Assembly: GCF_001625195.1 (NCBI RefSeq)
Contig: NC_054390.1
Coordinates: 6,917,222-6,981,221, forward strand
Source of the DNA: Drechmeria coniospora
Lineage: Eukaryota; Ascomycota; Sordariomycetes; Hypocreales; Ophiocordycipitaceae
Length of the DNA stretch: 64,000 bases
Direction of reading: 5' to 3'
The position numbers and the translations under genes are program-made. Shown in pieces: positions 1-63,390 of the stretch. Under the pieces are notes generated by a model, which was given only the letters and a program-made list of their open reading frames with translations, was not told the origin of the DNA and did not search any database. Position 1 is the first letter of the stretch; each line of letters starts with the position of its first letter.

Positions 1-552
1 CAGCCAACTCGTATCGACCGGTGTTTCGCTGGTTCGGTAGCCGAGAAAAACGGTGAAGGCGGAGCGACCAGTCGAGGTGGCGAGGAGGGACAGGATGACC
101 TTGGCGACGCCGCTGTTGGGAACCCCGTCGCGGTCGTGTGCATCGCCATCGAGGAAGCCGACTTGGTGACTGATTTCGCGCAAAAGGTGCAGCTCACGAA
201 TGGCCGTGAGCTTGAAGGCGGCGCCGTAGAGAAGGAGGACCTCGAACGGGGCGAGGTTGCGACGCATGCAGAGGATGAAGAGCTGATGAAGAGCGAGCGG
301 CAGCAGTGCGTGTATGATCACCCAACGGTGCGTGTACCACTCTGGTAGATAGGGCATCTTGTCTGTCTTGTTGTGGATCGGCACCGCCTTTTCCAAGGAC
401 GTCGGGTGGATGTCAAGCAGTTCGATGAGCCAGTGGAAGACAGACCACTTGTTGCGGTCCAGATGACGCCAAGTCGACTTGATCGAGTCTTTCGGGCTCT
501 TCTTGGCCGCCGGAAAGGACTCTGGCTGTGATTCTTCCGTCCATCTAGACAT
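1..552 (-). CDS. Sterol desaturase / fatty acid hydroxylase-like protein, N-terminal part (runs off left edge)
   Basis: An ATG at 552 opens a frame of exactly 184 codons that reaches base 1 without a stop, so the gene continues outside the window. The protein starts MSRWTEESQPESF and continues through a charged stretch (KDSIKSTWRHLDRNKW), a hydrophobic segment near HRWVIIHALLPLALHQLF, a second one near EVLLLYGAAFKLTAIREL, and a GFLDGDAHDRDGVPNSGV motif. From memory of the family, this order and the LDGD.H.RDGVP motif match fungal membrane proteins of the sterol desaturase/fatty acid hydroxylase superfamily. Those are ER-membrane di-iron enzymes whose histidine boxes would lie beyond the window edge, so catalytic competence cannot be judged. 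No intron is evident in this part. The substrate is unknown. Confidence 0.72.
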   Translation of the reverse strand, partial: MSRWTEESQPESFPAAKKSPKDSIKSTWRHLDRNKWSVFHWLIELLDIHPTSLEKAVPIHNKTDKMPYLPEWYTHRWVIIHALLPLALHQLFILCMRRNLAPFEVLLLYGAAFKLTAIRELHLLREISHQVGFLDGDAHDRDGVPNSGVAKVILSLLATSTGRSAFTVFLGYRTSETPVDTSWL

Positions 553-3500: not shown

Positions 3501-5385
3501 GAGCTGACGTCAGTTCATGGCTCCCGAGGCAACTTGGCGCCACCGGTGACTGCCAAGTGAGGCTGCTGCTGAATTGACTTGAAGCCGTGTTGGTGCGTGG
3601 CAGGAGGGGACGCCTGGACGAGGCAGTCTTCGAACAACAAGTCGAGGGCTGGGAGACGATGGTGCGTCACGCAGAGTAATTTCACGGTACGGGGTACAGG
3701 GAAATAGTATCGGACCTGTTCCAGATCAACCGTCAACCAGCCGCACAAACCATGCGGCCAAATGGCAACGGAAGGACCGTCTCGTGGACGGACGAGCTGA
3801 AGGGCCCGGTGTTGGCAGAACAGCAAACCAGATTCGCATGCAGGATGCGACAGGCATGTGCCGCTTTGTACCATTTTACCAAGGCCGCAGCCAGCTGTGC
3901 TGGGGCGCGCACCGTTCATTTTCTGGCGGCGGAAGAGAAACACAGTCACTAACGTGCAGCGAGTGCATTGGGCAGCCCCCAGGAGCCGCATGCCGGACGC
4001 CTTCGTCTTCGGGGGGACTGCTCCATCGTGAACAAGCGGCGACCGAGCCAGGCTGGCAGCGATTCAGCCATTGTCGGATTAGTTCGCCTCGGGAATATCT
4101 TCTCTGTTCACTCACCGCTCTCTCCCGTTCCGCACCGCTCCTCTCTGCGCCTCTCCGCTCGCTTCTGCTCTGGCGGCCTGCATGGAAAGGCGTGTGCGAG
4201 TCCCGTTGTAGTCTTCGTATCGTAGCCCACGGCCGTCGTCCCTGCCCCAGCAGACGGTGGAGGCTTCGTTCACTGTGTCCGAGGGTAAGGTATATAACAC
4301 GGCCGTAGCATCGATCTCCTCTCTTGGCTGTCCATCTCTCCACCCTTCTCTCGAAGTACCGAACCAACGATTGTAAAGCCACTCCAGGCGGACCCTGATC
4401 GCAGCATCCAAACGAGTGACCGGTTTGAGAAAAGGCGGGAGAGACACTGATCAATCGAGCCCTGCGTCATCCGAGTTCAAATTAGGCACTCGAAAGGGCG
4501 TAAAGCAGAGAGCAGACGAAGTCTTTGTATCGGAGGTACGTTGAATTTATTTCCATACCATTGATTTCTTCGCCTTTGATGGTGGCACAAGTGTGCCCTT
4601 CGGGTGCGAGCCTCGAGGAGCCGCAAAGCTGCGAAGCTACTAGGCCTCCGGACTCACCGTTGTGCGTCATGTCACTGGCAGCTGGATGCTCGTTGTGGAG
4701 ACGCAAAGGGGCCATGAATCAATCGTGCACGGGTTATTCATGGCCAGACAACACGTTGGCGAGCCGACAAGAGGGTCGACATGGGCTCCGAATCATACAA
4801 CAGAATGGCGACAACCGTGGCCGATCCCTTCACCCCCTTCCCTCCTGAGAGGACGAAGAATATTTATTGGGGGCGCCTGCCACTTTCTCATCGGCAGCTT
4901 TGTGCGGAAAGAGACGCTCAACACTTGTTCCCGCCTTTGTTGCGTTCGTCCCTCGTCCTTTCCTTCCAACACCAGTTCAGACACCCTGCGCACCTGCCGT
5001 CGTCACCCATCCGCCGCTGGCACGAGCACGACCATCTCCGGATGTGCTATGGAGTATTACTCTGTACTCCGTACTACCTAGTACATCAGTACGTACTGAT
5101 ACATAGCACACCTACAAGCAGGTACTGGTAGGGTACCCGCACCGAGTACGCATGCTGAGCACCCGTCCGATGGAAGAAGGCAACGGAGTGTGCAGTACAT
5201 GTATGTGCATGTACCGTACGTGTACATTACATGTATGCGGCGCTGTACGATGGCAAGCGCAGGTACAGGCACATGATCAACGTCACGAACGAGTACCGAG
5301 CACGTTGCTGGTGTGCTCCTCCTCGGCCGCTCCACGCATTACATCTGCTCGAGGAGACCAGATCACTACAAGGCACCCAGGCTCC

Positions 5386-36069: not shown

Positions 36070-39000
36070 CTAGCTGGGGGGGGTATTAAAAAGTACCGGG
36101 TTATAGTTGCCGTATACGATGAGATCCGCATTACCAGGTGCGTAGCTGATTGTATTAGACCCATCACTCAGTGACTTGCCCTCGGTTAAAACAACAGACG
36201 TAGTGTTGGGGTATATATACGGTGCACCTTGTGTTACGGTTACTAATGCCGGAGTGGTCGTGCCTGTCCTACCCGCTATTGGGATAAAGACAACACCACC
36301 ATTAGGGGCAAGGATTTTGACCCCGAGATTATATTCGGCAGCAAATGTTGCCGTAGGAACGACACCTGGTGACAATGCTGCACTACCCAGGATCCCATCG
36401 ATTAAAATTGCAATGGAATAATAAGGGTAGTAAAAGTTCGACGAATATGCCCAAATCTCTCCGGAGAAAAAAGAACAGCCGGAATTTACAAGAACTGCTT
36501 GGTTGTTGGTTACTATTTGGAAGCTTAGTGAATACGATGATGGATCGGATATTAGCGAAGCCGAATCTGAAACGCCACCTGGAGTAGTTGCCGTCATAGT
36601 GCTCGCGGCAGATCCAGCCACGGGGGGGATGATGTACGGCGGGATGACGAGTCCCAACCCGTTTGTAATGCCAACATAGCTTGATGATCCGCCATTAAAC
36701 GTATAACCGGCTGGAAGAGAGACCGTTACAGGTACATTTGTTGCACGGCTTCCGGCACGTAAAGCGGTAATCGATACGGGGGTAATCGTACATGGCGAGG
36801 GTGAATAGGTATTAAGGTTGAAGAATAAGGAGACTAGCGCCGGTGTTTGAACAACTATAGTACCAGAGGTGGTACCAGCAGGCGGGACAGTTACGGTCCT
36901 GGTAATAGTGCCGGACCAAGAACCCGTTGAACTTACGTAGCCTGGTGGAGTGGTAACAATAATCGTTGTAACGCAGTTGACACCGCATCCAGGCAGAGGC
37001 GGCAGCGTGACGGTACCGGCGGTTGGTCCCAGTGTAGTGATAGTGCTCAGGCCACCAGTTACAGTAACGACAATAGATATAAAACAACTGGTAGTGCAGC
37101 CAGGCGGTGGCTGAATCGTACTTATGCCTGGGACGGGCCCCAAGGTCGATGTAGTGGTAACGCCGACAGTTCTGGTAACGATGATTGATGTAACACAGTT
37201 GACAGAACATCCAGGTGGAGGTGGAATTGTACTAGTTCCGGCAACTGGTCCAAATGTAGTGCTTGTAGTTAAGCCGCCAGTTGCCGTAACGATAATGGAC
37301 GTGACGCAGTTAACAGTGCAGCCAGGCGGAGGCGCGATCGTACTGGTACCAGGAATAGGTCCAAATGTAGTGGTTGTAGTACGGCTACCCGTAAAGGTAA
37401 CGATGATTGACGTAACGCAGTTCACACTACACCCAGGAGGAGGCGGAATCGTACTGGTACCAGCGGTTGGTCCAAGTGTGGAAACGGTGCTCAGCGCACC
37501 TGTTGCGGTAACGATGATTGATATAACACAATTGACAGTGCAACTAGGTGGAGGTGGAATGGTGCTGGTGCCAGCAGTAGGTCCAAATGTAGTGGAAGTA
37601 ATAAAGCTACCGGTTGCGGTAACGATGATTGATGTAACACAGTTGACTGTGCAGCCCGGAGGAGGCGGAATCGTACTGGTACCAGCAGTGGGCCCGAATG
37701 TGGTTGTAGTAACAAAGCCACCGGTTGCGGTGACGACGATGGACGTTATGCAGTTGACAGTGCAGCCAGGCGGAGGTGGAATCGTGCTGGTACCGGGGGT
37801 AGGTCCGAATGTAGTCGAAGTGACAAGGCCACCTGTTGCGGTAACGATAATACTTGTGACACAATTGACCGTACATCCAGGCGGAGGTGGGATTGTGCTG
37901 GTCCCGGGAGTCGGTCCAAAGGTAGTTGAAGTAACAAAGCCTCCAGTTTGGGTAACGATAATTGATGTAACGCAGTTGACAGTACAGCCCGGGGGAGGTG
38001 GAATCGTACTAGTTCCAGCAGTTGGTCCAAACGTAGTAGAAGTAACAAAGCCGCCTGTTGCTGTAACGATAATACTTGTAACACAATTGACAGTACATCC
38101 AGCCGGGGGCGGGATCGTACTTGTACCGGGTGTCGGCCCAAATGTAGTAGAGGTAACAAGGCCACCTGTAGCTGTAACAATGATTGATGTAACGCAGTTG
38201 ACTGTGCATCCAGGCGGTGGAGGAATCGTACTAGTACCAGGGGTTGGTCCGAATGTAGTAGAGGTAACAAATCCACCCGTAGCTGTAACAATAATTGATG
38301 TAACACAGTTAACGGTGCAGCCCGGTGGTGGTGGAATTGTACTAGTACCAGCAGTTGGTCCGAATGTAGTCGAAGTAACAAACCCACCCGTTGCGGTAAC
38401 AATAATACTCGTAATGCAATTGACAGTACATCCAGGTGGAGGCGGGATCGTGCTTGTACCGGGCGTCGGTCCAAAGGTAGTTGAAGTAACAAGACCGCCT
38501 GTTTGCGTAACAATGATTTGCGTAAAGCAGTTGACGGTACAGCCCGGCGGCGGTGGAATCGTACTTGTACCAGCAGTTGGTCCAAATGTAGTAGAGGTAC
38601 TATATCCACCTGTAGCTGTAACAATAATTGATGTAACACAATTTACAGTACAGCCAGGCGGAGGTGGAATCGTACTTGTACCCGGAGTCGGTCCAAACGT
38701 AGTTGAAGTAATAAGACCTCCTGTTTGAGTAACAATAATTGATGTAACGCAGTTGACGGTGCAGCCCGGTGGAGGCGGAATTGTACTGGTGCCGGCCGTT
38801 GGCCCGAACGTAGTTGAAGTAACGAAGCCACCTGTTGCGGTGACAATGATACTTGTAACACAATTGACCGTACATCCGGGTGGAGGTACAATCGTACTGG
38901 TACCAGGAGTCGGTCCAAAGGTAGTTGACGTTACAAGACCACCGGTTTGGGTAACAATGATTTGTGTAAAGCAGTTAACTGTACACCCAGGCGGCGGAGG

Positions 39001-42000
39001 AATTGTGCTTGTACCGGCAGTTGGTCCGAATGTAGTAGACGTACTGTATCCACCCGTAGCTGTAACAATAATTGACGTAATGCAGTTCACAGTACAGCCA
39101 GGCGGAGGTGGAATCGTGCTAGTACCAGGAGTCGGTCCATAGGTAGTTGATGTTACAAGACCGCCAGTTTCGGTAACTATAATTTGCGTGAAGCAGTTTA
39201 CTGTGCATCCTGGTGGAGGTGGAATTGTACTAGTTCCAGCAGTCGGTCCGAAGGTAGTTGAAGTGCTCAATCCACCTGTAGCAGTTACGATAATTGTAGT
39301 ACCACAATTGACAGTACAACCTGGAGGAGGTCCAACGGTACTAGTACCAGGAGTCGGTCCATAGGTAGTAGTCGTAATTATACCACCTGTCAAGGTTACG
39401 ATAATTTGTGTAAAGCAGTTGATAGTGCATCCAGGTGGGGGTGGAATCGTGCTCGTACCAGCAGTAGGTCCAAAGGTAGTAGCAGTACTAAAGCCACCCG
39501 TAGCTGTAACAATAATCGACGTAATACAATTCACGGTGCAGCCAGGCGGAGGTAGAATCGTACTAGTACCAGGGGTCGGTCCGTAGGTAGTTAACGTCAC
39601 GAGCCCACCGGTTTCAGTAACTATGATTTGTGTAAAGCAGTTTACTGTACATCCTGGTGGAGGTGGAATTGTGCTAGTACCAGGAGTCGGTCCAAAGGTA
39701 GTTGAAGTGCTCAATCCACCTGTAGCAGTCACGATAATTGTAGTGCCACAATTGACAGTACAACCTGGAGGAGGTCCAATTGTGCTAGTACCAGGAGTCG
39801 GTCCGTAGGTAGTCGTTGTTACTATACCACCTGTTAGGGTGACGATAATTTGTGTAAAACAATTAATAGTACAGCCAGGTGGAGGCGGAATGGTGCTTGT
39901 GCCAGCTGTTGGTCCAAATGTAGTAACAGTACTGAAGCCACCTGTTGCAGTAACAATAATGCTTGTAACACAATTCGCGGTGCATCCGGGCGGAGGCGGA
40001 ATCGTACTGGTACCAGCAGTCGGTCCATAGGTAGTCGACGTTACGAGACCACCGGTTTCAGTAACTATAATTTGCGTAAAGCAATTGACTGTACATCCAG
40101 GCGGAGGCGGAATTGTGCTTGTGCCTGCTGTTGGTCCAAAGGTGGTAGAAGTGCTGAAGCCACCTGTTGCAGTAACAATAATGCTTGTAACGCAATTCGC
40201 GGTACATCCGGGTGGAGGCAGAATCGTACTGGTACCAGGAGTCGGTCCGTAGGTAGTTGAGGTTACAAGTCCGCTAGTTTCAGTAACGATAATTTGTGTA
40301 AAGCAATTTACTGTGCATCCTGGCGGAGGTGGAATCGTGCTTGTACCAGCTGTTGGTCCAAAGGTGGTAACAGTGCTAAATCCACCTGTAGCGGTTACAA
40401 TAACCGTTGTGCCGCAATTAACGGTGCAACCAGGGGGCGGCCCAATTGTACTAGTACCAGGAGTCGGTCCATAGGTAGTAGTTGTAATAATACCACCCGT
40501 TAGAGTTACAATAATTTGTGTAAAGCAGTTAATGGTGCAGCCAGGCGGAGGTGGAATCGTACTTGTACCGGCTGTTGGTCCAAATGTTGTTATACTGCTG
40601 AATCCTCCTGTAGCCGTAACAACAATTATCGTTACGCAGTTGACGGTACATCCGGATGGAGGCGGAATCGTACTAGTACCAGGAGTCGGTCCGTAGGTAG
40701 TTGACGTTACAAGACCACCGGTTTCAGTAACAATAATTTGGGTAAAGCAGTTGACTGTACATCCTGGCGGAGGGGGAATTGTGCTAGTGCCAGCTGTTGG
40801 GCCAAATGTCGTTACGGTACTTAATCCACCTGTAGCAGTTACAATAATAGTTGTACCGCAATTAACAGTACAACCTGGAGGAGGTCCAATTGTGCTGGTT
40901 CCAGGAGTAGGTCCATAGGTAGTGGTTGTTATAATACTACCTGTTAGGGTCACTATGATCTGCGTGAAGCAGTTGACTGTACAGCCGGGCGGAGGTGGAA
41001 TCGTGCTTGTACCAGCTGTCGGTCCAAACGTTGTTATGCTGCTGAATCCTCCAGTAGCCGTAACAACAATCGTAGTTACGCAGTTGGCAGTACAGCCTAG
41101 CGGAGGTCCAATAGTACTAGTACCAGGAGTCGGTCCGTATGTAGTTGTTATTACAAGACCACCAGTTTCGGTAACTATAATTTGTGTAAAGCAATTTACA
41201 GTACATCCAGGGGGTGGTGGAATTGTGCTAGTGCCTGCTGTTGGTCCAAATGTCGTTATGGTGCTGAATCCACCTGTAGCTGTTACAATGATAGTTGTAC
41301 CGCAATTGACTGTACAACCTGGAGGAGGCCCAACTGTACTAGTACCAGGAGTCGGTCCATAGGTAGTAGTTGTAATTACACCACCCGTTAAGGTAATTAT
41401 AATTTGTGTAAAGCAGTTGACGGTACAGCCAGGTGGAGGAGGAATTGTGCTTGTACCGGCTGTTGGTCCAAATGTTGTCATACTGCTAAATCCTCCTGTA
41501 GCAGTAACAATAATCGTCGTGACGCAGTTAGCGGTACAGCCTGGAGGAGGCCCAACAGTGCTAGTACCAGGTGTAGGTCCATAGGTAGTTGACGTTACAA
41601 GCCCACCAGTTTCAGTAACGATAATTTGTGTAAAGCAGTTGACTGTGCATCCTGGTGGTGGTAGGATTGTGCTAGTACCTGCGGTTGGGCCAAATGTCGT
41701 TATGGTACTAAATCCACCTGTAGCTGTGACGATAACTGTTGTACCGCAGTTTACAGTACAGCCTGGCGGAGGCCCGACTGTGCTTGTACCAGGAGTCGGC
41801 CCATAGGTAGTAGTCGTAATGACACCACCTGTAAGTGTTACAATAATTTGTGTAAAGCAGTTGACCGTACATCCAGGTGGAGGTGGAATCGTGCTTGTAC
41901 CAGCTGTCGGTCCGAATGTTGTTATACTGCTGAATCCTCCTGTAGCCGTAACAATAATCGTTGTTATGCAGTTGGCGGTGCAGCCTGGAGGAGGCGGAAT

Positions 42001-45000
42001 CGTACTAGTACCAGGAGTCGGTCCGTAGGTCGTTGATGTTACAAGACCACCGGTTTCGGTAACTATAATTTGTGTAAAACAATTCACGGTACATCCAGGA
42101 GGTGGTGGAATTGTGCTAGTACCTGCGGTTGGGCCAAATGTCGTCAACGTACTGAATCCGCCTGTGGCTGTTACAATGATAGTTGTCCCACAATTGACTG
42201 TACACCCAAGGGGAGGTCCAATCGTGCTAGTGCCAGGAGTCGGTCCATAGGTAGTAGTCGTAATTACACCACCTGTCAAGGTAACTATAATTTGCGTAAA
42301 GCAGTTGACAGTACATCCAGGTGGAGGTTGAACTGTGCTTGTACCAGCTGTTGGTCCAAATGTTGTAATGCTGCTGAATCCTCCTGTAGCCGTAACAATA
42401 ATTGTCGTTACGCAGTTGGCGGTACATCCGGGTGGAGGCGGAATCGTGCTAGTACCAGGAGTCGGTCCATAGGTCGTTGACGTTACAAGCCCACCAGTTT
42501 CGGTAACAATGATTTGTGTAAAGCAGTTTACTGTGCATCCTGGTGGAGGTGGGATTGTGCTAGTACCTGCGGTTGGGCCAAATGTCGTTATGGTACTAAA
42601 TCCACCTGTAGCTGTGACGATAATAGTTGTACCGCAGTTTACAGTGCAGCCTAGCGGAGGCCCGATTGTGCTTGTACCAGGCGTCGGCCCATAGGTAGTG
42701 GTCGTAATTACACCACCTGTAAGGGTTACGATGATTTGTGTAAAGCAGTTGATCGTACATCCAGGCGGAGGAGGAATCGTACTTGTACCGGCTGTCGGTC
42801 CAAACGTTGTTATGCTACTGAATCCTCCAGTAGCGGTAACGATAATCGTTGTTATGCAGTTTACGGTACAGCCTGGAGGTGGCTCAATAGTGCTAGTACC
42901 GGGAGTTGGTCCATACGTTGTCGATATTACCAGCCCACCAGTTTCAGTAACTATAATTTGGGTAAAGCAGTTTTCTGTACATCCAGGAGGGGGTAGGATT
43001 GTGCTAGTACCAGCAGTTGGGCCAAATGTCGTTACGGTACTGAAACCACCTGTAGCTGTGACGATAATAGTTGTACCACAGTTTACAGTGCAACCTAGCG
43101 GAGGCCCGATTGTGCTTGTACCAGGCGTCGGCCCATAGGTAGTAGTCGTGATTACACCACCTGTAAGGGTTACGATGATTTGTGTAAAGCAGTTGACCGT
43201 ACACCCAGGCGGAGGTGGAATTGTACTTGTACCAGCTGTCGGTCCAAACGTTGTTATGCTGCTGAATCCTCCAGTAGCCGTAACAACAATCGTAGTTACG
43301 CAGTTGGCAGTACAGCCTGGAGGAGGCCCAACAGTGCTTGTACCGGGAGTCGGCCCGTACGTAGTCGATGTTACGAGGCCAGCAGTTTCGGTAACTATAA
43401 TTTGTGTAAAGCAGTTTACCGTACATCCTGGTGGAGGTGGAATTGTGCTAGTACCAGCAGTTGGGCCAAATGTCGTTATCGTACTAAATCCACCTGTAGC
43501 TGTAACGATAATAGTTGTACCACAGTTTACAGTGCAGCCTAGCGGAGGCCCGATTGTGCTAGTGCCAGGAGTCGGTCCATATGTAGTAGTCGTAATTACA
43601 CCACCTGTAAGTGTTACGATGATTTGTGTAAAGCAGTTGACCGTACATCCAGGCGGAGGTGGAATCGTACTTGTGCCAGCAGTAGGTCCAAATGTCGTTA
43701 CGCTGCTGAAGCCACCAGTGGCTGTAACAATGATTGTTGTAGGACAGAATCCAGTACAACCAGATGACGGGAGGATAGTACTTGTTCCTGGTGTTGGCCC
43801 AAATGTAGACTCAGTAATAACCCCTCCAGTAGGAGGTATGGTTACGATTATCGTCGTAGGGCAGTTACCCACGCACCCGGATGATGGCAATATCGTGCTG
43901 GTGCCGGCTGACGGCCCAGTCGTAGATTGTGTGATGGCACCCGTGGTTGGGATTGTAATAATAATAGTTGTTGGGCAGTTTTCATTTCTGCGTCCAATGC
44001 CGCGCCGAACAGGCATCAATGATTGATCAGCGCAGCCGGATGATGGCAATATTGTACTGGTACCAGCTGAAGGTCCAAATGTAGTTTCCGTAATAATGCC
44101 ACCTGTAGAACCAATAGTTACAATAATTTGAGTAAAACAGGTCACTGTACATCCTGGAGGTGGTGGAATCGTGCTAGTACCAGCAGTCGGGCCAAAGGTT
44201 GTAATGGTGCTGAATCCTCCAGTAGCTGTGACTATAATCCTAGTTGGGCAGAACCCTGTACATCCAGAAGATGGTAAAATTGTGCTTGTACCTGGTGTAG
44301 GACCATACGTAGATTCCGTAAGAACCCCGCCGGTGACGGTGACTATAATTTGTGTATAACAATTCACCGTGCATCCAGGTGGTGGCAAGACTGTGCTCGT
44401 GCCTGCTGTTGGTCCAAATGTCGATATAGTACTAAAGCCACCTGTTGCCGTAACAATAACAGTTATTACGCAGTTTGAGGTACAGCCTATAGGAGGTCCA
44501 ATAGTGCTAGTGCCCGGAGTTGGTCCAAAGGTTGTTGACGTTACAAGTGTGCCAACTTCCGTTACAATAATTTGCGTAAAGCAGTTTACTGTGCATCCTG
44601 GAGGAGGCGTGACCGTGCTAGTGCCTGCAGTTGGGCCAAAGGTTGTTATAGTACTAAGAGCACTAGTAACAGTCACAATAATTTGTGTAAAGCAGTTCAC
44701 TGTGCATCCAGGAGGTGGTGGGATCGTGCTGGTTCCCGCAGTTGGGCCAAAGGTTGTAACAGTGCTGTATCCTCCGGTTGCTGTAACAATAATCGTAGTA
44801 GGGCAGAATCCCGTACATCCAGAGGATGGCAAGATTGTGCTTGTACCTGGTGTCGGGCCATACGTAGTTTCCGTGAGAACGCCGCCGGTAATAGTTACTA
44901 TAATTTGTGTATAGCAGTTCACAGTACACCCAGGGGGTGGTAAGACTGTGCTCGTGCCTGCTGTTGGTCCAAACGTCGATACAGTACTAAAGCCACCTGT

Positions 45001-48000
45001 TGCCGTAACAATAATAGTTATTAGACAGTTCGTAGTACAGCCTGGTGGGGGTCCAACAGTACTGGTGCCTGGAGTCGGCCCAAAAGTGGTTGACGTTACA
45101 AGAGTGCCAACTTCTGTAACGATAATTTGGGTAAAGCAGTTAACTGTGCATCCGGGAGGAGGTGTAACTGTGCTAGTGCCTGCAGTCGGGCCAAAGGTTG
45201 TAATGGTACTCAGAGCGCTAGTAACAGTAACAACGATTTGCGTATAGCAGTTCACTGTGCATCCCAGAGGCGGTGGAATCGTGCTTGTGCCAGCAGTCGG
45301 ACCAATGGTTGTAACAGTGCTGAATCCTCCAGTAGCTGTGACAATAATCCTAGTTGGGCAGAATCCTGTACATCCAGAAGATGGTAAAATTGTGCTTGTA
45401 CCTGGTGTAGGACCATACGTAGATTCCGTAAGAACCCCGCCGGTAATGGTGACTATTATTTGTGTGTAACAATTCACCGTGCATCCAGGTGGTGGGAGGA
45501 TAGTGCTCGTGCCAGCTGTAGGTCCAAACGTAGATATAGTACTAAAGCCACCTGTTGCTGTAACAATGATGGTTATTACGCAGTTAGAGGTACAGCCTAT
45601 CGGAGGTCCAATAGTGCTTGTTCCCGGAGTCGGCCCATAGGTTGTTGACGTTACAAGAGTGCCAACTTCGGTAACAATTATTTGCGTAAAGCAGTTTACT
45701 GTGCATCCTGGAAGAGGTGTGACCGTGCTAGTGCCTGCAGTTGGGCCAAAGGTTGTAATGGTACTAGGAGCGCTAGTAACAGTAACAATGATTTGTGTAA
45801 AGCAGTTGACTGTGCATCCTGGTGGAGGTGTAATCGTACTAGTGCCTGCAGTCGGGCCATAGGTTGTTATAGTACTAAGAGCACTAGTAACAGTAACAAT
45901 AATTTGTGTAAAGCAGTTCACTGAACATCCTGGAGGCGGTGGAATCGTACTTGTACCAGCTGTTGGGCCAATGGTTGTAACAGTGCTGAATCCTCCAGTA
46001 GCTGTTACTATTATTCTAGTTGGGCAGAATCCCGTACATCCAGCAGACGGCAAGATGGTACTTGTACCCGGCGTAGGACCGTACGTAGATTCGGTAACCA
46101 CTCCACCAGTTATAGTAACTATAATTTGCGTGTAACAATTCACTGTGCATCCAGGTGGTGGTAAGACTGTGCTCGTGCCTGCTGTTGGTCCAAACGTCGA
46201 TACAGTACTAAAGCCACCTGTTGCCGTAACAATAATAGTTATTAGACAGTTCGTAGTACAGCCTAGTGGGGGTCCAACAGTACTGGTGCCTGGAGTCGGC
46301 CCAAAAGTGGTTGACGTTACAAGAGTGCCAACTTCTGTAACGATAATTTGGGTAAAGCAGTTAACTGTGCATCCTGGAGGAGGTGTAACTGTGCTAGTGC
46401 CTGCGGTTGGGCCATAGGTTGTCAAGGTACTGAAGGCGCTAGTAACAGTAACTATAATTCGGGTATAGCAGTTCACTGTGCATCCAGGAGGTGGCGGGAT
46501 CGTGCTAGTTCCAGCAGTTGGGCCAAAGGTTGTAACAGTGCTGAAACCTCCTGTAGCAGTAACAATGATTCTAGTTGGGCAGTATCCTGTACATCCAGAT
46601 GACGGGAATATTGTGCTTGTTCCAGCTGTTGGCCCAAATGTCGATTCGGTAACAGTTCCGCCAGTGGGAGCAACGGTTACAATTATGATTGTAGGGCAAT
46701 TACCTATGCATCCAGACGATGGTAATATCGTACTCGTTCCTGCTGTTGGTCCAACCGTAGATTGTGTGATAGCACCAGTAGTAGCAATTGTAATAATAAT
46801 CGTCGTAGGACAGTTGACATTTCTCGGTGCAATGCCACGACGGCCCATCATTGCTTCATCGACACATCCCGAGGATGGCAATACTGTAATTGTTCCCGCT
46901 GTTGGTCCATACGTTGTTTCAGTGATGACGCCACCTGATGGGCCTATAGTGACAATAATTTGCGTGTAGCAGTTCACTGTACATCCAGGCGGTGGCGGAA
47001 TCGTACTAGTTCCAGCAGTCGGTCCAGTGGTTGAAATAGTGCTGAATCCACCAGTAGCTGTAATAATGATTCTTGTTGGGCAGTACCCTGTACATCCAGC
47101 AGATGGGAGGACTGTGCTTGTACCAGCTGTAGGACCATATGTAGATTCAGTAATTATACCGCCTGTCGGAGCTACAGTTACTATGATTTGTGTAGAGCAA
47201 TCGACTGTACATCCTGGCGGTGGTGACACTGTACTGGTCCCAGCTGTCGGTCCGTATGTGTAAACAGTGCTAAAGCCAGTAGTAACTGTAACGATAATTC
47301 TAGTAGGGCAGTATCCTGTGCACCCAGAAGATGGTAGCATTGTACTGGTTCCCGCCGTAGGTCCATATGTGGATTCAGTTATCACACTACCTGTAGGCGC
47401 TACTGTTACAATGATTTGCGTGAAGCAGTTGACTGTGCATCCTGGAGGTGGTGGAATTGTACTTGTCCCAGCAGTTGGCCCAAATGTCGTAACAGTGCTG
47501 AAGCCACCAGTAGCGGTAACAATGATTCGAGTTGGGCAGTATCCTGTACATCCAGCAGATGGGAGGACTGTGCTTGTGCCAGGTGTAGGGCCATAAGTAG
47601 ATTCCGTAATAAAGCCACTTGGAGCTTCAGTAACAATAATTTGGGTAAAGCAGTTGACTGTGCACCCTGGAGGTGGTGGGATCGTGCTTGTTCCAGCAGT
47701 CGGCCCAAATGTTGTAACGGTGCTGAAGCCACCAGTAGCCGTAACAATGATTCTAGTTGGGCAGTATCCTGTACATCCAGCAGATGGGAGAACTGTGCTG
47801 GTACCAGGTGTAGGGCCGTATGTAGATTCGGTAATCGTGCCGCCTGTAGGAGCTACAGTAACAATAATTTGGGTAAAGCAATTCACTGTACATCCTGGTG
47901 TCGGTGAAACGGTACTAGTCCCAGCGATTGGTCCAAAGGTTGTGAAAGTGCTGTAGCCACCAGTAGCAGCAACGATAATTCTAGTAGGGCAGTATCCTGT

Positions 48001-51000
48001 GCACCCAGAAGATGGGAGGACTGTGCTGGTACCTGCTGTAGGACCGTACGTAAATTCAGTGACAATGCCACCTGTAGGCGCTACTGTTACAATGATTTGT
48101 GTGAAGCAGACTGTGCATCCTGGAGGTGGAGAAATTGTACTCGTCCCAGCAGTTGGTCCAAATGTCGTCACAGTGCTGAAGCCACCAGTAGCGGTAACAA
48201 TGATTCTAGTCGGGCAGTATCCTGTACATCCAGCGGATGGAAGGACTGTACTAGTACCAGGTGTAGGGCCGTATGTAGATTCAGTAATAGTGCCGCCTGT
48301 AGGAGCTACAGTAACAATAATTTGGGTAAAGCAGTTCACCGTACATCCAGGAGGTGGTAGAACCGTACTAGTTCCTGCAGTCGGGCCAAAGGTAGAGATG
48401 GTGCTAAAGCCGCCAGTAGCAGTAACGATAATTCTAGTAGGGCAGTATCCTGTGCATCCAGCAGATGGAAGGACTGTACTAGTACCAGGTGTAGGGCCGT
48501 ATGTAGATTCGGTAATTGTACCGCCTGTAGGAGCTACAGTAACAATAATTTGGGTAAAGCAGTTAACCGTGCATCCAGGTGGCGGCGGAATCGTGCTTGT
48601 TCCTGCAGTCGGTCCAAAGGTAGAGATGGTGCTGAAGCCGCCAGTAGCAGTAACGATAATTCTGGTAGGGCAGTATCCTGTGCATCCAGCAGATGGGAGA
48701 ACTGTGCTTGTGCCAGGTGTAGGGCCGTATGTAGATTCGGTAATTGTACCGCCTGTAGGAGCTATAGTAACAATAATTTGGGTAAAGCAATTCACCGTAC
48801 ATCCAGGAGGTGGTGGGATCGTGCTGGTTCCAGCAGTTGGTCCAAAGGTTGTAACAGTACTGAAGCCACCAGTAGCTGTAACGATAATTCTGGTAGGGCA
48901 GTATCCTGTACATCCAGCAGATGGGAGAACTGTGCTGGTACCAGGTGTAGGGCCGTATGTAGATTCGGTAATAGTGCCGCCTGTAGGAGCTACAGTAACA
49001 ATAATTTGGGTAAAGCAGTTCACCGTACATCCAGGCGGTGGCGGGATCGTGCTCGTTCCAGCAGTCGGTCCAAATGTAGAGATGGTGCTGAAGCCACCAG
49101 TAGCAGTAACGATAATTCTAGTAGGGCAGTATCCTGTACATCCTGCAGGTGGAAGGACTGTACTAGTACCAGGTGTAGGGCCGTATGTAGATTCAGTAAT
49201 AGTGCCGCCTGTAGGAGCTACAGTAACAATAATTTGGGTAAAGCAGTTAACCGTGCATCCAGGTGGCGGCGGGATCGTGCTTGTTCCTGCAGTTGGTCCA
49301 AAAGTTGTAACAGTACTGAAACCACCAGTAGCAGTAACGATAATTCTGGTAGGGCAGTATCCTGTACATCCAGCAGATGGGAGGACTGTGCTTGTGCCAG
49401 GTGTAGGGCCGTATGTAGATTCGGTAATTGTACCGCCTGTAGGAGCCACAGTAACAATAACTTGGGTAAAGCAGTTAACTGTGCAACCAGGAGGTGGCGG
49501 GATCGTGCTAGTCCCAGCAGTTGGTCCAAAAGTTGTAACAGTACTGAAGCCACCAGTAGCGGTAACAATGATTCGAGTTGGGCAGTATCCTGTACATCCA
49601 GCAGATGGGAGGATTGTGCTTGTTCCTGGCGTTGGTCCAAAGGTTGATTCCGTAAGAAAGCCGGCAGTCTCGGTAATAATGATTCTAGTAGGGCATATAC
49701 CTGAACATCCAGATGAGGGGAGGATTGTGCTCGTACCTGGAACCGGCCCAAACGTCGACTCTGTGATAATGCCTGCCGTGAGTGTGACAATAATTTTTGT
49801 CGGGCAGTAACCCGTGCATCCAGCTGATGGCAAGATTGTAGTTGTACCGGGTGTTGGTCCCAAGGTTGACTCTGTCAGATAGCCGCCAGTTACGGTAACA
49901 ATCACAACAGTAGGGCAGTATCCCATACATCCAGCTGATGGCAAGATCGTACTTGTACCTGGACTAGGGCCAAATGTAGACTCAGTAGTAATGCCAGCTG
50001 TAGCGGTAACAATAACCCTTGTAGGGCAATACCCAGTGCACCCTGCTGATGGAATTATCGTTGATGTACCAGGGGTAGGTCCATAGGTAGATTCTGTGAC
50101 GATACCGCCCGTTGCACCTACCGTCACAATTATCTGCGTTGGACAGTAACCTGTGCATCCTGGTGGCGGCAAGATTGTACTGGTACCAGGTGTTGGCCCC
50201 AATGTTGACTGCGTTACGACGCCACCAGTCCTTGTAACAATAATTCGTGTAAAACAATTAACGGTGCAATCAGGGGGAGGTGGAATGGTGCTGGTACCAG
50301 GTGTAGGCCCAAATGTCTCCTCTGTCACAACACTGGCAGTTTGTGTAACAATAACTCTGGTAGGGCAATATCCTGTACAATCAGGTGGTGGTGGGATTGT
50401 GCTTGTACCTGGTACTGGCCCGAACGTTGTCTGAGTAATGAGCGATAATGATGTTGGATCGACAATAATTACGGTACCAGTCAAGAATGTTCCGGTTGGT
50501 GGCAAGGTGATCGTAGATCGTATTAAGCCGGTTCCTTTACTGGTTACTGTTGTATATGGGCCTGTAAATGTTGTCTGCGGATCAACAATTACTACAGTGC
50601 CAGTCAAGAATGTTCCTGTTGGTGCCAAGGTAATCGTAGATCGTACTGAGCCGGTTCCTTGGCTGGTTACTGTTGTATATGGACCTGTAAATGTTGTCTG
50701 TGGATCGACAATTACTATAGTGCCAGTTAAGAATGTTCCTGTTGGTGCCAAGGTAATCGTAGATCGTACTGAGCCGGTTCCTTGGCTGGTTATTGTTGTA
50801 TATGGACCTGTGAATGTTGTTTTCGGATCGACAATTATTATAGTGCCAGTCAAGAATGTTCCGGTTGGTGCTAAGGTAATTGTTGATCGTACTGAGCCGG
50901 TTCCTTGGCTAGTTATCGTGGTATATGGACCTGTGAATGTTGTTTTCGGATCGACAACTATTACAGTGCCAGTCAAGAATGTTCCGGTTGGTGCTAAGGT

Positions 51001-51823
51001 AATTGTTGATCGTACTGAGCCGGTTCCTTGGCTAGTTATCGTCGTATATGGACCTGTGAATGTTGTTTTCGGATCGAAAACTATTACAGTGCCAGTCAAG
51101 AATGTTCCGGTTGGTGCTAAGGTAATTGTTGATCGTGCTGAGCCGGTTCCTTGGCTAGTTATCGTCGTATATGGACCTGTGAATGTTGTTTTCGGATCGA
51201 CAATTATTACAGTGCCAGTCAAGAATGTTCCGGTTGGTGCTAAGGTAATTGTTGATCGTGCTGAACCGGTTCCTTGGCTAGTTATCGTCGTATATGGACC
51301 TGTAAAGGTTGATTTTGGCCCAATGACTACTACAGTCCCAGTCTTATCTGTACCTGATGGTGGTAGCGATAGTGTAACTGTATTGGTGCCTGTTCCGATT
51401 GCAGTAATCGTTGTATACGGTCCTGTAAATGTTTGCTGTGTTTTGCTTGGCTCTATTATTATAATGGTCCCAGTTTTGCCTGTTCCTGTAGGGTTTAATG
51501 AGATTGTCGAAGGAGCAGTGCCAGTACCAATACCGGTAATCGTTGTATATGGTCCAGTAAATGCAGTTCTATCAGGATACGAAGTTCGTGTCCTAGAATA
51601 TTCGTTAGCTTCTATTTTATAACGCCGTATGCAATTCGATCACATCGTACCGAACATGATTGCTTTCTATCGTTGTGCCGGAACATATTATTTGAAGTGG
51701 CTGAAAATCGATAATAACTGTCCCTTCATCCTTGTGTTTCCCTTCATCATTGTGTTTCCCTCCTTGAACGAGGTTGAGACATAAATGAAAAAAAGCAAGC
51801 TTTGCAAAACATTTCATAGTCAT
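36070..51823 (-). CDS. Giant secreted Thr- and Cys-rich repeat protein, adhesin-like
   Basis: Two exons are inferred: 51823-51651 and 51592-36070, giving 5,232 codons with stop (5,231 residues). Exon 1 encodes MTMKCFAKLAFFHLCLNLVQ, a plausible signal peptide, then a short KHNDEGKHKDEG doublet. The 58 bp intron has GTACGA donor, GCTAAC branch and TTCTAG acceptor and joins CG|G into the large frame, which has no ATG of its own for its first 370 bases. Residues about 66-435 are nine 41-residue repeats (TFTGPYTTITSQGTG...TGTVIVVDP). Residues about 436-4940 are about 120 repeats of near 37 residues (TTFGPTAGTSTIPPPPGCTV then NCFTQIIVT), each with a C-x3-C pair. About 290 unique residues end the protein (YTFNGGSSSYVG, LGLVIPPYIIPPVAG), with no clear GPI signal. 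Thr density and repeat style recall fungal flocculin/ALS-type surface proteins, but I recognise no named family. Secretion and adhesion are inference. Confidence 0.85.
39350..43740 (-). repeat. Higher-order repeat, about 444 bp (four 37-residue units)
   Basis: The subtype unit TGGVITTTTYGPTPGTSTIG recurs with landmarks near 43.60, 43.16, 42.72, 42.27, 41.83, 41.38, 40.94 and 40.50 kb, a spacing of about 440-445 bp, and again near 39.83 and 39.39 kb. Each period holds the same ordered set of four subtype units, so amplification occurred in four-unit steps. Confidence 0.75.
43976..44035 (-). other. Non-repeat spacer cassette 2 inside the giant protein
   Basis: The segment ADQSLMPVRRGIGRRNEN lies at about residue 2590 and contains two Arg-Arg pairs. 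It shares the D..xM...RRGI..RN.N pattern with cassette 1, and in both places the following unit is the unusual CPTTIIITIxTTGAITQST. The two therefore descend from one ancestral insertion copied with its surroundings about 2.8 kb apart. Confidence 0.8.
46812..46865 (-). other. Non-repeat spacer cassette 1 inside the giant protein
   Basis: A short segment (VDEAMMGRRGIAPRNVN) interrupts the Cys pair of one repeat unit at about residue 1640. It carries an Arg-Arg pair, a possible site for a Kex2-type protease. A related cassette lies at 43976-44035. Confidence 0.8.
50460..51560 (-). repeat. N-terminal repeat block A, nine coding units of about 123 bp
   Basis: Nine tandem units centred on GPYTTIT (the last two read GPYTTVT). 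The first two are divergent (GIGTGTAP, AIGTGTNT) and the other seven are near-identical in protein (SQGTGSxRSTITLAPTGTFL, the last changed to SKGTGLIR). Unit length is 41 residues. The T.FTGPYTT...T..TVIVVDP pattern resembles flocculin-type repeats. Confidence 0.85.
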
Positions 51824-54651: not shown

Positions 54652-55098
54652 CTATCGGTGCTGGTGTATGTATGCCCAAATATCTTCGGAATAATCTAGA
54701 CAACCATCGTTTTTAAGTACGTGGTCATTTTTTACCACTTCAACGATCAGTTTATACGATAATGGATCAGATAGTAGAAAAGCCGAATCTGAAACCCCAT
54801 CTGGGGTGGTTGCTAATATTGTTATCGCGGTAGATCCAGCCACAGGGGGTATGATGTACGGCGGGATAACCAGTCCTAGCGCATTTGAAGTTCCGACATA
54901 GCTTGAAAGGCCACCATCAAACGTATAACTGCCAGGAAGAGAGACCGTTACAGGTACAGATGTTGCAGGACTTTTCACACATGAAGCAGTTATCGGTATA
55001 GGGGTAATCGTACATAGCGAGGGTTGATAGGAAATACTATTTAAGAATACGGAGATTGGTACTACTACCTTAACGTATATCTTCAATTCTAACTTCAA
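54652..55098 (-). pseudogene. Truncated copy of the giant protein's C-terminal region
   Basis: This 148-codon open frame matches the unique C-terminal part of the protein encoded at 36070-51823. Shared segments include CTITP, VPVTVSLP, SSYVG, LGLVIPPYIIPPVAGS, ATTP, GVSDSA and IWAY, in the same order and spacing. By eye roughly two thirds of the residues agree over about 110 positions. The nucleotide sequences are also alignable (ATGATGTACGGCGGGAT in both). The similarity begins near VVVPISVFLN and stops after IWAY. There are no Thr/Cys repeats, no leader peptide and no sequence matching the last 130 or so residues. It is on the same strand as the giant gene and ends about 50 bp from a transposase relic. 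It is probably a non-functional duplicate, though a small expressed protein cannot be excluded. Confidence 0.85.
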
Positions 55099-61047: not shown

Positions 61048-63390
61048 CTACACCCTTGCAATTCGACGCTGTCGCACGAGGAACGGACTCGGCATCTCGT
61101 CTCTCTCGGGATCCCAGACTGCCACCGGCTCGCTTCCGCTTCCGCCGCTTGCCCTTCTCTCGCCTGTCACGCGATCGCGGAAAGCCCCTCGCTTCGGGCT
61201 CGCGTTGTCCGTCGCCGCTGCGCCCAACTGACGGCCCCCAGCGCGGGCCTGCTGCAGCTCGACGAGCGTCCGACCCTTGATGCTGTTTTTCGTCGCAAGC
61301 TTGTTGAGATTGTCGCCGCTGGCGCTGCCGGTGTCCTTCTTCATCGAGTTCTTTCGGCTCAGACCGCCACCGTTGGACGTTGCTTCCGACTGCAGGCTGG
61401 CGACGGACGGTATTCTACTGAGCGGACGCGCCGGCGAGCGCGTGCGAGACTCAGCCTGTGACATCGCCGCAGCTCCCGCGACGGCCTTGGAAACTAGACC
61501 GGCGCAGGAAGCTTTCGTCTTGAGACGGTTGACCGGGCCAGACTTTTGCGACGTCAGCACTGGCCGGTCCCTTGCCGTGAAGGGATTCTTTGCCGATCTG
61601 TGTCGCGTAGGAGACGGCATCAAGTCGTCGTCATCCGACTCGATGCAAGTCGGCTCACGATGCAGCGCCCACTTAGGGTCGCCGTGGACGGCGTTGTTGG
61701 CCGCGAAGATGTTGGCCGCGTGGGTCGAGGGCGGCTTCGTAGCGCCACCCCGACGCGGCGAGAGCGAGAGCGAGGCGATGGCCATTGGGCTAGGAGAGGC
61801 CATCTCGACGTCCATTGGCGTGCCCGTGGCCCCGGCAAACATCGTCTGCGCCCGGCCAAAGGGCGTCCGCGTGCTGCGTTTGGCCTCCTTGGACGATTCG
61901 GGGCTGTCGATGGAGTACTCGGTGATGTCCGTCGTCGACAGGAAGTCGTCGCTGCTGGCGCCGATGGAGGAATGGGGGTAGTCGGATCTGGCCGACGACG
62001 AGGCGTACTCCTCCACGGCCGGCTCCTCGGCCACGAGCGTGACCGTCTTTTTCTTCTGCAGCTCAGCATCGATGCGGTTCCGGACCTCTTCTTCAAATCG
62101 CTTATTCAGCCGGTCGACCTCGGCGTTGACGAGCCGGTCAATTTCGAGTCGGGCCTTGACCTCCCATTCACGGCGCACGCAGGCGTCGACCTCGTCGCGC
62201 ACGAGGTCCTTTTCCCGATCTATCGTCGCCAGCCTGTCCTCGAGCTCCTTTTCCTTCCGCTTGACCGAGTCTTCCCTCGCCTTGAGCGACTTATTCAGGT
62301 CGACGACCTCCTTCTCCTTGCGCATCAGTCTCACCACGGGCAAGTCCAACAACTGCGCCGTGTCGGGCCGTCGATCGGGGTTCACCCGCAGGCAATCCTT
62401 GATCACCTGGAAAAGCTCGGGCGAGTAGATGGCCGGTAACGGCGCCACCCTGCCTTCCTTGATCTTCTGAACGAGCTGGAAGTGCGTCTTGGCGTTGAAC
62501 GGCGGCTCGCGTGAGCAGAGCTCGTACATGATGCAGCCGAGCGACCAAATGTCCGACTTGAGGGTGTATTTTTCGGCCGCGCAGATCTCCGGAGACATGT
62601 AGAAGGGGGTGCCGACGTAGGTAGAGGCGAAGTCGTGCGACTTGATCATCTTGGAAAGGCCAAAGTCACCGAGCTTCACCGAGTTGTCCTCGCCAAGAAA
62701 CACTGCGTCCCCGTACCTTCCGTCAGCCTTGTTTTTGCCACTCGACTGCGCAACAGGGCAGTGAGATACTGGGAGAGTGAGCGGGGGGGGGAACGTACCA
62801 TTCTCGGGCTTTAGATCTCGATGGAGAATCGTCATGGTGCCTGCCGGAACCTTCGGGCTCGCGCTGGCGGTGCCCTGCGCCAGGCCTAGCACGTTTGCTC
62901 CGACGTCGGGGGGGTCGACACCGTAGTGGCAGCGATACAAGGCCATGACGAGCTGGCTAAAGATGCTCCAGACAAAGCTCTCCTGCGCGTGCTGGCCCTT
63001 GAGCTGCAGGTCCTTGATGACGCGGCCGAGGTCGCCGTTGCCGCAGTACTCCATGTACAGATGCAGATCCTGGCTGAGTTTGAGGTGTTCGCGGTGGTAG
63101 TATGCGACGATGTTGGCATGCCGGAGGTGGGAGAGGATCTGGAACTCGGCGTGGAGCTGCTCGCGCTCCTTCTGGGACATTCGCAAGTAGGAGATCTCCT
63201 TGCGGCACATGATGAAGCCATCTTCCTTGCGTCGCACCTTGCGGATGATGCCAAAGGAGCCATGGCCTGGGAGAAGACCGATCCCGTCAGATCGTCGTCA
63301 TGCGGAGGGGAGGGAGGGGGGGCGCAAGCGGCTGGCCGACTCACCAATCTTCTCCAACGTGTCGTACTTGCTCTCGGACGACATCGACAT
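61048..63390 (-). CDS. nimA: NIMA-type serine/threonine protein kinase
   Basis: Three exons are inferred: 63390-63345, 63266-62799 and 62702-61048, giving 723 codons with stop (722 residues). Intron 1 (78 bp, GTGAGT...TCCCAG) splits the glycine loop and restores LEKIGHGSFGIIRKV. Intron 2 (96 bp, GTACGT...GACGCAG, branch GCTGACGG) is in frame and would otherwise insert 32 residues into the catalytic loop; splicing gives HRDLKPENVFLGEDNSVKLG. Catalytic features are Lys38, the HRDLKPEN loop starting at H164, D184-F-G, and the activation segment STYVGTPFYMSPE. A charged coiled coil follows (about 285-400, RKEKEVVDLNKSLKAREDSV onward), then a long basic Ser/Pro-rich tail. This is the layout of Aspergillus NIMA and Neurospora NIM-1, which drive G2/M entry. 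The C-terminal tail in that family usually carries PEST/degradation signals. Confidence 0.95.

What the first reader, a model, noticed from the sequence alone, without database searches (positions are those of the whole stretch)
36070..51823. A 5,231-residue secreted repeat protein in an uninterrupted 15.5 kb exon
Seen: one open frame of 15.5 kb with two repeat families (nine 41-residue Thr-rich units, about 120 Cys-pair units of near 37 residues), a plausible signal peptide and a unique C-terminal region. Known: fungal surface adhesins (flocculins, ALS, MAD-type) combine a leader with Thr/Ser-rich tandem repeats. Inference: this is a giant secreted adhesin or matrix protein, possibly extracellular and disulfide-stapled, with some 240 repeat cysteines. 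I recognise no named family for the GTSTIPPPPGC type unit.
Basis: partly seen in the sequence, partly recalled or inferred. Interest (0 to 1): 0.9.

Follow-up and report, generated by a model that had tools for sequence, protein, structure and literature searches.

The report
Giant repeat adhesin of nematode-killing fungus
A fungus that kills roundworms carries a gene for a probably secreted protein of more than 5,000 amino acids built almost entirely of repeats, and it belongs to a large family of giant, probably sticky surface proteins crowded near the chromosome ends that share a stalk but carry different tips.

Summary
In detail: a minus-strand gene (51823..36070) encodes 5,231 residues in two exons split by a 58-bp intron, with a signal-peptide-like start, nine ALS-type units, 120 Cys pairs and a 257-residue C-terminal head. 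It is coding: stalk units are nearly random at silent sites while the protein is conserved (dN/dS about 0.10), and no cysteine of the 120 pairs is lost. The gene belongs to a family: 39 open frames of 2,000 aa or more match its start, stalk or head, 36 of them within 1 Mb of a chromosome end (frame lengths are upper bounds). Members share a secretion exon with one invariant cysteine but differ in their heads: 8 of 13 other 3' ends carry GLEYA domains, 2 DUF6923. The nearest sibling was read whole: 4,080 aa, same exon 1, GLEYA head. This gene's head is unknown to Pfam and the PDB. Best reading: a giant surface adhesin. Secretion, expression, structure and ligand are not shown; both structure predictions failed; earlier work found D. 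coniospora ALS genes low-expressed.

The parts
51651..51823 (-). exon 1: signal-peptide-like start plus the family motif GTVIIDFQPLQIICSGTTIESNHV with Cys47
   Evidence: aligned with 19 other family starts; Cys47 invariant in 20 of 20
51593..51650 (-). 58-bp phase-2 intron with GCTAACG branch-like site and CTAG end
   Evidence: best-scoring introns of 54-62 bp at the same place in 18 of 21 starts examined; in several, this one included, a second acceptor 20-25 bp on scored equally
36070..51592 (-). exon 2 with stop codon
50446..51567 (-). nine ALS-type 41-residue Thr-rich units (residues about 67-440)
   Evidence: Pfam PF05792 E 3.9e-22, 8 stretches
36973..50472 (-). array of 120 Cys pairs in units of about 37 residues (residues about 432-4931)
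   Evidence: homologous to stalk repeats of GLEYA/PA14 proteins (E 1.2e-29)
46810..46866 (-). unit 31: 17-residue loop between the two Cys instead of 3, holding the dibasic pair RR (residue 1642)
43975..44034 (-). unit 56: 18-residue loop between the two Cys, holding two RR pairs (2587, 2592); with unit 31 these are the only dibasic pairs of the Cys array
36844..36972 (-). linker with one W(S/T)G-type ALS-like unit before the head
   Evidence: by eye against paralogues
36535..36843 (-). head module 1, Ig-like by appearance only
   Evidence: alignment; only sub-threshold DUF11 and Ig-type Pfam hits
36073..36534 (-). head module 2 (about 154 residues), shared with paralogues that lack module 1
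   Evidence: whole head against the C3:528 kb head dN/dS 0.17
54667..55077 (-). truncated second copy of the head, a remnant upstream of the gene
   Evidence: 61-64% aa identity, 79% DNA identity over 302 bp

Best explanation
The gene encodes a giant surface adhesin of Drechmeria coniospora. Exon 1 gives a signal peptide and a short conserved region with one invariant cysteine; exon 2 gives a long Thr-rich stalk of nine ALS-type units and 120 Cys pairs, each pair probably closed by a local disulfide (C-x3-C), ending in a 257-residue head. The stalk holds the head away from the wall; the head takes the place of the GLEYA/PA14 lectin of sibling proteins and probably binds a surface (nematode cuticle, other fungal cells or matrix). 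Attachment is not by a GPI anchor as far as hydropathy tells; if two cysteines go with the signal peptide, 243 are left, an odd number, and the invariant exon-1 cysteine could link the N-terminus to the wall or a partner. Shown here: gene structure, coding constraint, repeat homology to GLEYA/PA14 stalks, the family and its different heads. Inferred: secretion, disulfides, attachment, ligand, role in infection.
For: Coding and constraint: dN/dS 0.10 with silent differences near saturation (pS 0.68); no cysteine lost in 120 pairs (240 Cys, every gap 3, 4, 18, 19 or 33-35), with both codons in use; unit DNA identity 0.689 against 0.652 with random synonymous codons. Homology: the stalk finds P0002-P0004 (D. 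coniospora RJ55_04776, Phialemonium, Clonostachys), all three with GLEYA and PA14 over the Pfam cut-off, profile match E 1.2e-29. The nearest sibling, read whole without N or inner stop, has the same exon 1, 95 four-spaced Cys gaps and a GLEYA head, 4,080 aa. GLEYA over cut-off in 8 of 13 3' ends of frames that start with the exon-1 pattern (for 12 of the 13 the link from start to head rests on frame length only); the one head compared with the PDB matches Flo5, Flo1, Cea1 and Epa1 lectins (best E 2.9e-9). Exon-1 pattern: 20 places in the genome, 0 for the reversed control. Zhang et al. report one of nine GLEYA proteins as highly expressed in conidiogenesis and infection (passage).
Against: No expression, proteomic or binding data for this gene. 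Zhang et al. report that none of 10 ALS-encoding genes was highly transcribed (passage); whether this gene is among them is not known. This copy has no GLEYA/PA14 hit and no GPI-like tail. Its silent sites are AT-rich (GC3 0.34; three window ORFs, not verified as genes, use less T or A there), which does not suggest strong expression. Structure predictions were useless (mean pLDDT 34.7 and 29.6). Other head and N-terminal pairs of the family are less constrained (dN/dS 0.26-0.54).
Confidence: 0.72

Rival explanations
1. A secreted matrix or wall-coat polymer: the stalk of 120 Cys pairs is itself the functional part (mucilage or adhesive-bud glue, self-associating), and the head only caps or nucleates it.
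For: The Cys array is about 86% of the protein and has the lowest dN/dS measured (0.10, against 0.17-0.54); no GPI-like tail; the head is no known ligand domain.
Against: Siblings have GLEYA domains at this position in 8 of 13 cases, which points to recognition; the head is itself constrained (dN/dS 0.17 against C3:528 kb).
Confidence: 0.2
2. A mostly silent reserve gene of a switching repertoire near chromosome ends, rarely or never expressed and kept by recombination with siblings.
For: The family is concentrated near chromosome ends (36 of 39 frames within 1 Mb); ALS genes reported as not highly transcribed; broken siblings exist (C2:465-469 kb, C3:9.73 Mb).
Against: Nearly random silent sites with dN/dS 0.10 and no inner stop over 15.5 kb mean long use of the protein; this copy lies 3.2 Mb from the nearest end.
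Confidence: 0.15
3. Non-coding satellite-like tandem DNA that happens to be open in one frame.
For: Tandem arrays with a unit divisible by three and no stop are open by construction.
Against: Variation concentrated at third positions, dN/dS 0.10, no Cys lost with both codons in use, conserved exon 1 and intron, constrained head.
Confidence: 0.01

Closest known systems
GLEYA/PA14 proteins of Sordariomycetes (RJ55_04776 of D. coniospora; proteins of Clonostachys rosea and Phialemonium thermophilum)
   Same: Same Cys-pair stalk repeat (51% identity over 139 columns, E 1.2e-29), C-terminal head; a sibling with this gene's exon 1 and stalk has a GLEYA head.
   Different: 539-1,017 aa against 5,231; fewer units, in part with Pro-rich linkers; their head is GLEYA/PA14, this one is not.
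Candida ALS proteins and yeast flocculins
   Same: ALS-type repeats (PF05792), Thr-rich stalk.
   Different: No ALS N-terminal adhesin domain or Flo11 domain hit in exon 2, head at the C-terminus, no GPI-like tail, Cys-pair units.
Subtelomeric EPA adhesin family of Candida glabrata
   Same: Large PA14 adhesin family near chromosome ends (PMC6023349, passages).
   Different: The EPA ligand domain is N-terminal (same passages) and the anchor is GPI; here heads are C-terminal, of at least four kinds, on very long stalks.
D. coniospora repeat proteins and repeats already reported (PMC4859500 paralogous group 2; PMC4792172 ten ALS genes, nine GLEYA proteins and about 0.5-Mb species-specific repeats at chromosome ends)
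   Same: Probably overlap with this family, by position and description.
   Different: The passages read do not describe giant intact genes, the shared exon 1 or exchangeable heads; identity with those gene models was not tested and supplements could not be read.

Membership tests
GLEYA/PA14 (Flo/Epa-type) adhesins | PA14/GLEYA ligand-binding domain in the protein itself | tested here: not met
   No such hit for the head; profile comparison with the three GLEYA proteins 0.2% probability
GLEYA/PA14 (Flo/Epa-type) adhesins | Homologous repeat stalk | tested here: met
   E 1.2e-29
GLEYA/PA14 (Flo/Epa-type) adhesins | Same gene family as members with the domain (shared exon 1, intron, stalk) | tested here: met
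   one sibling read whole; seven more by open frame
GLEYA/PA14 (Flo/Epa-type) adhesins | GPI anchor signal | tested here: not met
   no hydrophobic tail in the own C-terminus or in any of 21 others (hydropathy only, no GPI predictor)
Candida ALS family | ALS repeat PF05792 | tested here: met
   E 3.9e-22
Candida ALS family | N-terminal ALS adhesin domain | tested here: not met
   no such hit in exon 2; exon 1 holds only 58 residues and was not scanned
Flo11-type flocculins | Flo11 domain | tested here: not met
   no hit in the three pieces that cover exon 2
MAD1/MAD2 adhesins | sequence kinship with Mad1 or Mad2 | not tested
   no Mad sequence was compared
any secreted surface adhesin | secretion and binding | not testable with these tools
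   needs expression and binding assays

The most novel reading that the evidence does not exclude
D. coniospora devotes a large part of its chromosome ends to a repertoire of some tens of giant adhesins, mostly of about 4,000-5,000 residues, that share one secretion exon and a Cys-pair stalk but swap C-terminal heads (GLEYA/PA14 lectin, DUF6923, glycine-rich, and the new two-module head seen here). Recognition of host or partner would be changed by swapping heads on a common stalk, and dibasic sites set inside two disulfide loops would let a Kex2-like protease nick the chain without releasing it.
Probability: 0.4. Interest if true: 0.8.

Novelty: new variant of a known kind. Interest (0 to 1): 0.66.

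Why it matters
If true, part of what has been described as species-specific repeats at the chromosome ends of a model nematode pathogen is a coding repertoire of giant adhesins, relevant to how its spores stick to and choose Caenorhabditis elegans. It gives a filamentous-fungus counterpart of the EPA family of Candida glabrata, with gigantism and C-terminal head exchange, and a stalk whose silent sites are nearly randomised while its protein is held: a long protein repeat that is hardly a DNA repeat any more.

Tried and rejected
Structure prediction of four Cys-pair units (37 rows) and of the head (2 rows) gave mean pLDDT 34.7 and 29.6; not used, no fold search made. Head by sequence: no database protein scored (021 candidates of 2,845-9,050 aa by the tool's length rule,422 candidates), no PDB chain by phmmer; weak profile hits to a pectate lyase (E 0.0027) and antibody chains and sub-threshold Pfam hits are not trusted. 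OTU1_UBXL (over its cut-off) and BsaP (below it) hits to the Cys array are taken as chance hits of a Cys-rich repeat. Exon 1 against the N-terminus of P0002: 24% identity, E 0.076, not significant. ALS-type against Cys-pair units: E 0.05, probability 1%, so a common origin is not shown. RIP as cause of the silent divergence: the gene's TpA/ApT is 1.40 (PMC4792172 takes 0.89 as its limit), but C-to-T at silent sites is not specific for a following A (0.67, against 0.71 before G), so RIP is not shown. A count of Cys as invariant in 100 of 100 units was dropped as circular, because the units had been cut at Cys pairs; the gap list replaces it. The frame of 11,522 aa at C2:5.15-5.19 Mb was first taken as a giant; it is open because of a run of N, so the frame lengths of other loci are upper bounds. 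Of the other 38 frames, 21 have matches that span 6 kb or more from first to last (the two adjoining frames at C3:9.36 Mb counted as one), and one (C2:478 kb) has a stop inside its match.

Papers: PMC4792172, PMC4859500, PMC7500977, PMC10512298 and PMC6023349 were seen as passages found by term, plus section 12 of PMC4859500; all others only as search listings. Searches for earlier reports of giant adhesins in filamentous fungi: (two returned none, 81 one paper on C. glabrata). Supplements could not be read.
Full report
The gene. On the minus strand, exon 1 (51823..51651) starts with ATG and a signal-peptide-like stretch, MTMKCFAKLAFFHLCLNLVQG; a 58-bp intron with a fungal-type branch site follows; exon 2 runs to the stop at 36070 without interruption, giving 5,231 residues. 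A second acceptor 24 bp on scored equally in a simple script. Nine ALS-type units come first (Pfam PF05792, E 3.9e-22), then 120 Cys pairs in units of about 37 residues, one WSG-type unit, and a head of 257 residues.

Is it coding? An open frame in a tandem array proves little, so I compared the 100 units of exactly 37 residues (the 19 of 119 of other lengths were left out). Silent differences are close to saturation (pS 0.68) while pN is 0.17, dN/dS 0.10; codon position 3 has an entropy of 1.49 bits against 0.48 and 0.41 at positions 1 and 2. Mean DNA identity of units is 0.689, against 0.652 if codons were drawn at random for the same proteins (1,500 sampled pairs); protein identity is higher, 0.745; 0.7% of unit pairs exceed 90% DNA identity. 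From the first to the last pair there are 240 Cys, and every gap is 3, 4, 18, 19 or 33-35, so no unit has lost a cysteine, while TGT and TGC are both common. Thus the array is old and held at the protein level. By contrast, of the eight ALS-type units compared, neighbours are 0.85-0.98 identical in DNA apart from the first pair (0.62): a younger array. Periods of two and four units are visible (DNA identity 0.74 and 0.78 at lags 2 and 4, 0.68 at lag 1). The head is also constrained: dN/dS 0.17 against the C3:528 kb head, with saturated silent sites. Other pairs are less so: 0.54 and 0.26 for two pairs of sibling heads, 0.48 for the head against the upstream remnant, 0.47 for the N-terminal part of exon 2 against the C3:9.65 Mb sibling.

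The organism. The genome holding the window has three large contigs of 12,542,233, 10,204,147 and 9,751,215 bases, which match the three inferred chromosomes of 12.5, 10.2 and 9.8 Mb reported for Drechmeria coniospora (PMC4792172, passage). This fungus infects nematodes by conidia that stick to the cuticle through an adhesive bud (PMC4859500, passage).

What the unit is. A search with 932 residues of the Cys array gave three proteins with E <= 0.001 among 7,992 scored (only proteins of 0.55 to 1.75 times that length are candidates): RJ55_04776 of D. coniospora, one of Phialemonium thermophilum and one of Clonostachys rosea. All three have GLEYA and PA14 domains over the Pfam cut-offs, and their repeats align to four units of this array at 51% identity, E 1.2e-29. 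The unit is therefore the stalk repeat of GLEYA/PA14 proteins.

The family. In the same genome 39 open frames of 2,000 aa or more match the start, stalk or head of this gene, 501 kb in all by frame length (compiled by hand, whose lists are cut or score only the best candidates). The number is a lower bound on family size; the lengths are upper bounds, since one frame (C2:5.19 Mb) proved to be held open by a run of N. Four of the 39 (C1:7.78 Mb, C1:12.29 Mb, C2:394 kb, C2:452 kb) rest on weak one- or two-unit matches (E 3e-5 to 6e-4), and one (C2:478 kb) has a stop inside its match. For 21 paralogues the matches span 6 kb or more. 36 of 39 frames lie within 1 Mb of a chromosome end, against 18% expected (p about 2e-23, counting frames as independent). 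The gene in the window is one of the three exceptions, with C1:7.78 Mb and C2:5.19 Mb.

The shared start. I examined 21 starts: this one, three loci already held and 17 fetched stretches. In 18 the script found an ATG, a best-scoring phase-2 intron of 54-62 bp and an open exon 2; in two (L044, L045) the same exon-1 peptide is there but the script found no splice; one (L054) has a stop in exon 1. The 20 peptides without a stop align, with P42, C47 and S48 invariant; the consensus holds GTVxVEFQPFxIICSGTTIESY. A degenerate DNA pattern for part of it has 20 matches in the genome and none for the reversed control. Compared by eye, all 20 lie beside family frames, 17 of them frames of 2,000 aa or more; 19 are within 1 Mb of an end.

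The heads. I read the 3' ends of 13 of the 16 other frames of 2,000 aa or more that carry the exon-1 pattern (no N in any). Eight have GLEYA over the Pfam cut-off, four of these with two stretches (L083, L085, L090, L091); two have DUF6923 over the cut-off; one (L087) has a glycine-rich end with a sub-threshold ALK/LTK hit; one (L092) is glycine-rich by eye without a hit; one (L086) resembles module 2 of this gene by eye. Start and end were matched by frame length. For the nearest sibling (C3:9.64-9.65 Mb) I fetched the stretch between: it is intact, without N or inner stop, 4,080 residues from the shared exon 1 through 95 four-spaced Cys gaps to a GLEYA head (GLEYA E 6.8e-16). One GLEYA head, the only one searched against the PDB, matches solved lectin domains of Flo5, Flo1, Cea1 and Epa1 (best E 2.9e-9). 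A search with this gene's head finds it, whole or in part, at 12 other places, six of them in frames of 2,000 aa or more, and weakly at a thirteenth (C3:600 kb). So the C-terminal head is an exchangeable part, and this gene's head stands where siblings carry a lectin-type domain. Its own function is unknown: no Pfam, NCBIfam, PDB or protein-database match worth trusting.

How it most likely works. Shown: gene, constraint, stalk homology, shared exon, different heads. Inferred: the protein is secreted, O-glycosylated on its 26% Thr, each C-x3-C pair closes locally, and the stalk holds the head away from the wall. None of the 22 C-terminal ends examined (own and 21 others) has a hydrophobic GPI-type tail. 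Two cysteines fall in the signal-like stretch, leaving 243, an odd number; the exon-1 cysteine, invariant in the 20 aligned starts, is the natural candidate for a link to the wall or a partner. The only dibasic pairs of the 4,464-residue array (1642, 2587, 2592) lie in the two widened Cys-pair loops, so a Kex2-like cut there would nick the chain yet leave it held by the disulfide. That is speculation from sequence.

Against this reading: no expression or protein data; the published statement that ten ALS genes are not highly transcribed (PMC4792172, passage; the same passage has one of nine GLEYA proteins highly expressed in conidiogenesis and infection); AT-rich silent sites (GC3 0.34); and the failed structure predictions. 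The most economical verdict is a new, giant variant of a known kind, the fungal GLEYA/PA14 and ALS adhesins, arranged as a repertoire near chromosome ends as in Candida glabrata (PMC6023349, passages), with a head type that none of the libraries searched here knows.

Noticed in passing
window 54667-55077 (-): Truncated second copy of the head domain, 79% identical in DNA over 302 bp, in a low-GC stretch upstream of the gene; looks like the remnant of a neighbouring family gene.
   Followed up: partly
window 46810-46866 and 43975-44034: Two widened Cys-pair loops with the only dibasic RR sites of the array; the units that follow each (32-33 and 57-58) also resemble each other, suggesting a block duplication that kept the loop.
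   Followed up: partly
window 36070-51592: Silent sites are AT-rich (GC3 0.34) and TpA/ApT is 1.16-1.61 in the 4-kb steps over the gene, against 0.46-1.12 in the rest of the window; a RIP cause could not be shown from the sequence context.
   Followed up: partly
G000:C2 5131252-5133723 and 5186124-5187446: Family repeats on opposite strands with several equal match scores on either side of an unassembled gap; the copy beside the gap ends in a glycine-rich head.
   Followed up: partly
L026, L027 (G000:C3 9.36-9.41 Mb): A second, diverged type of exon 1 (MNHITLWRFAILIALLSIFEHANSDCQDW...) with the intron at the same place, not caught by the exon-1 pattern, so the family is larger than the 20 pattern matches.
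   Followed up: no
G000:C2 465595-469360 and C3 9731630-9732703: Broken family members with inner stops or split frames, showing turnover of the family.
   Followed up: no
G000:C3 769065-771823: Inside a family frame the same 23-base match recurs at 13 places exactly 228 bp apart, a period other than the 111 bp of this gene.
   Followed up: no
window 61048-63237 (-): Neighbouring ORF of 729 aa that reads like a NIMA-type protein kinase (recalled resemblance, not searched).
   Followed up: no
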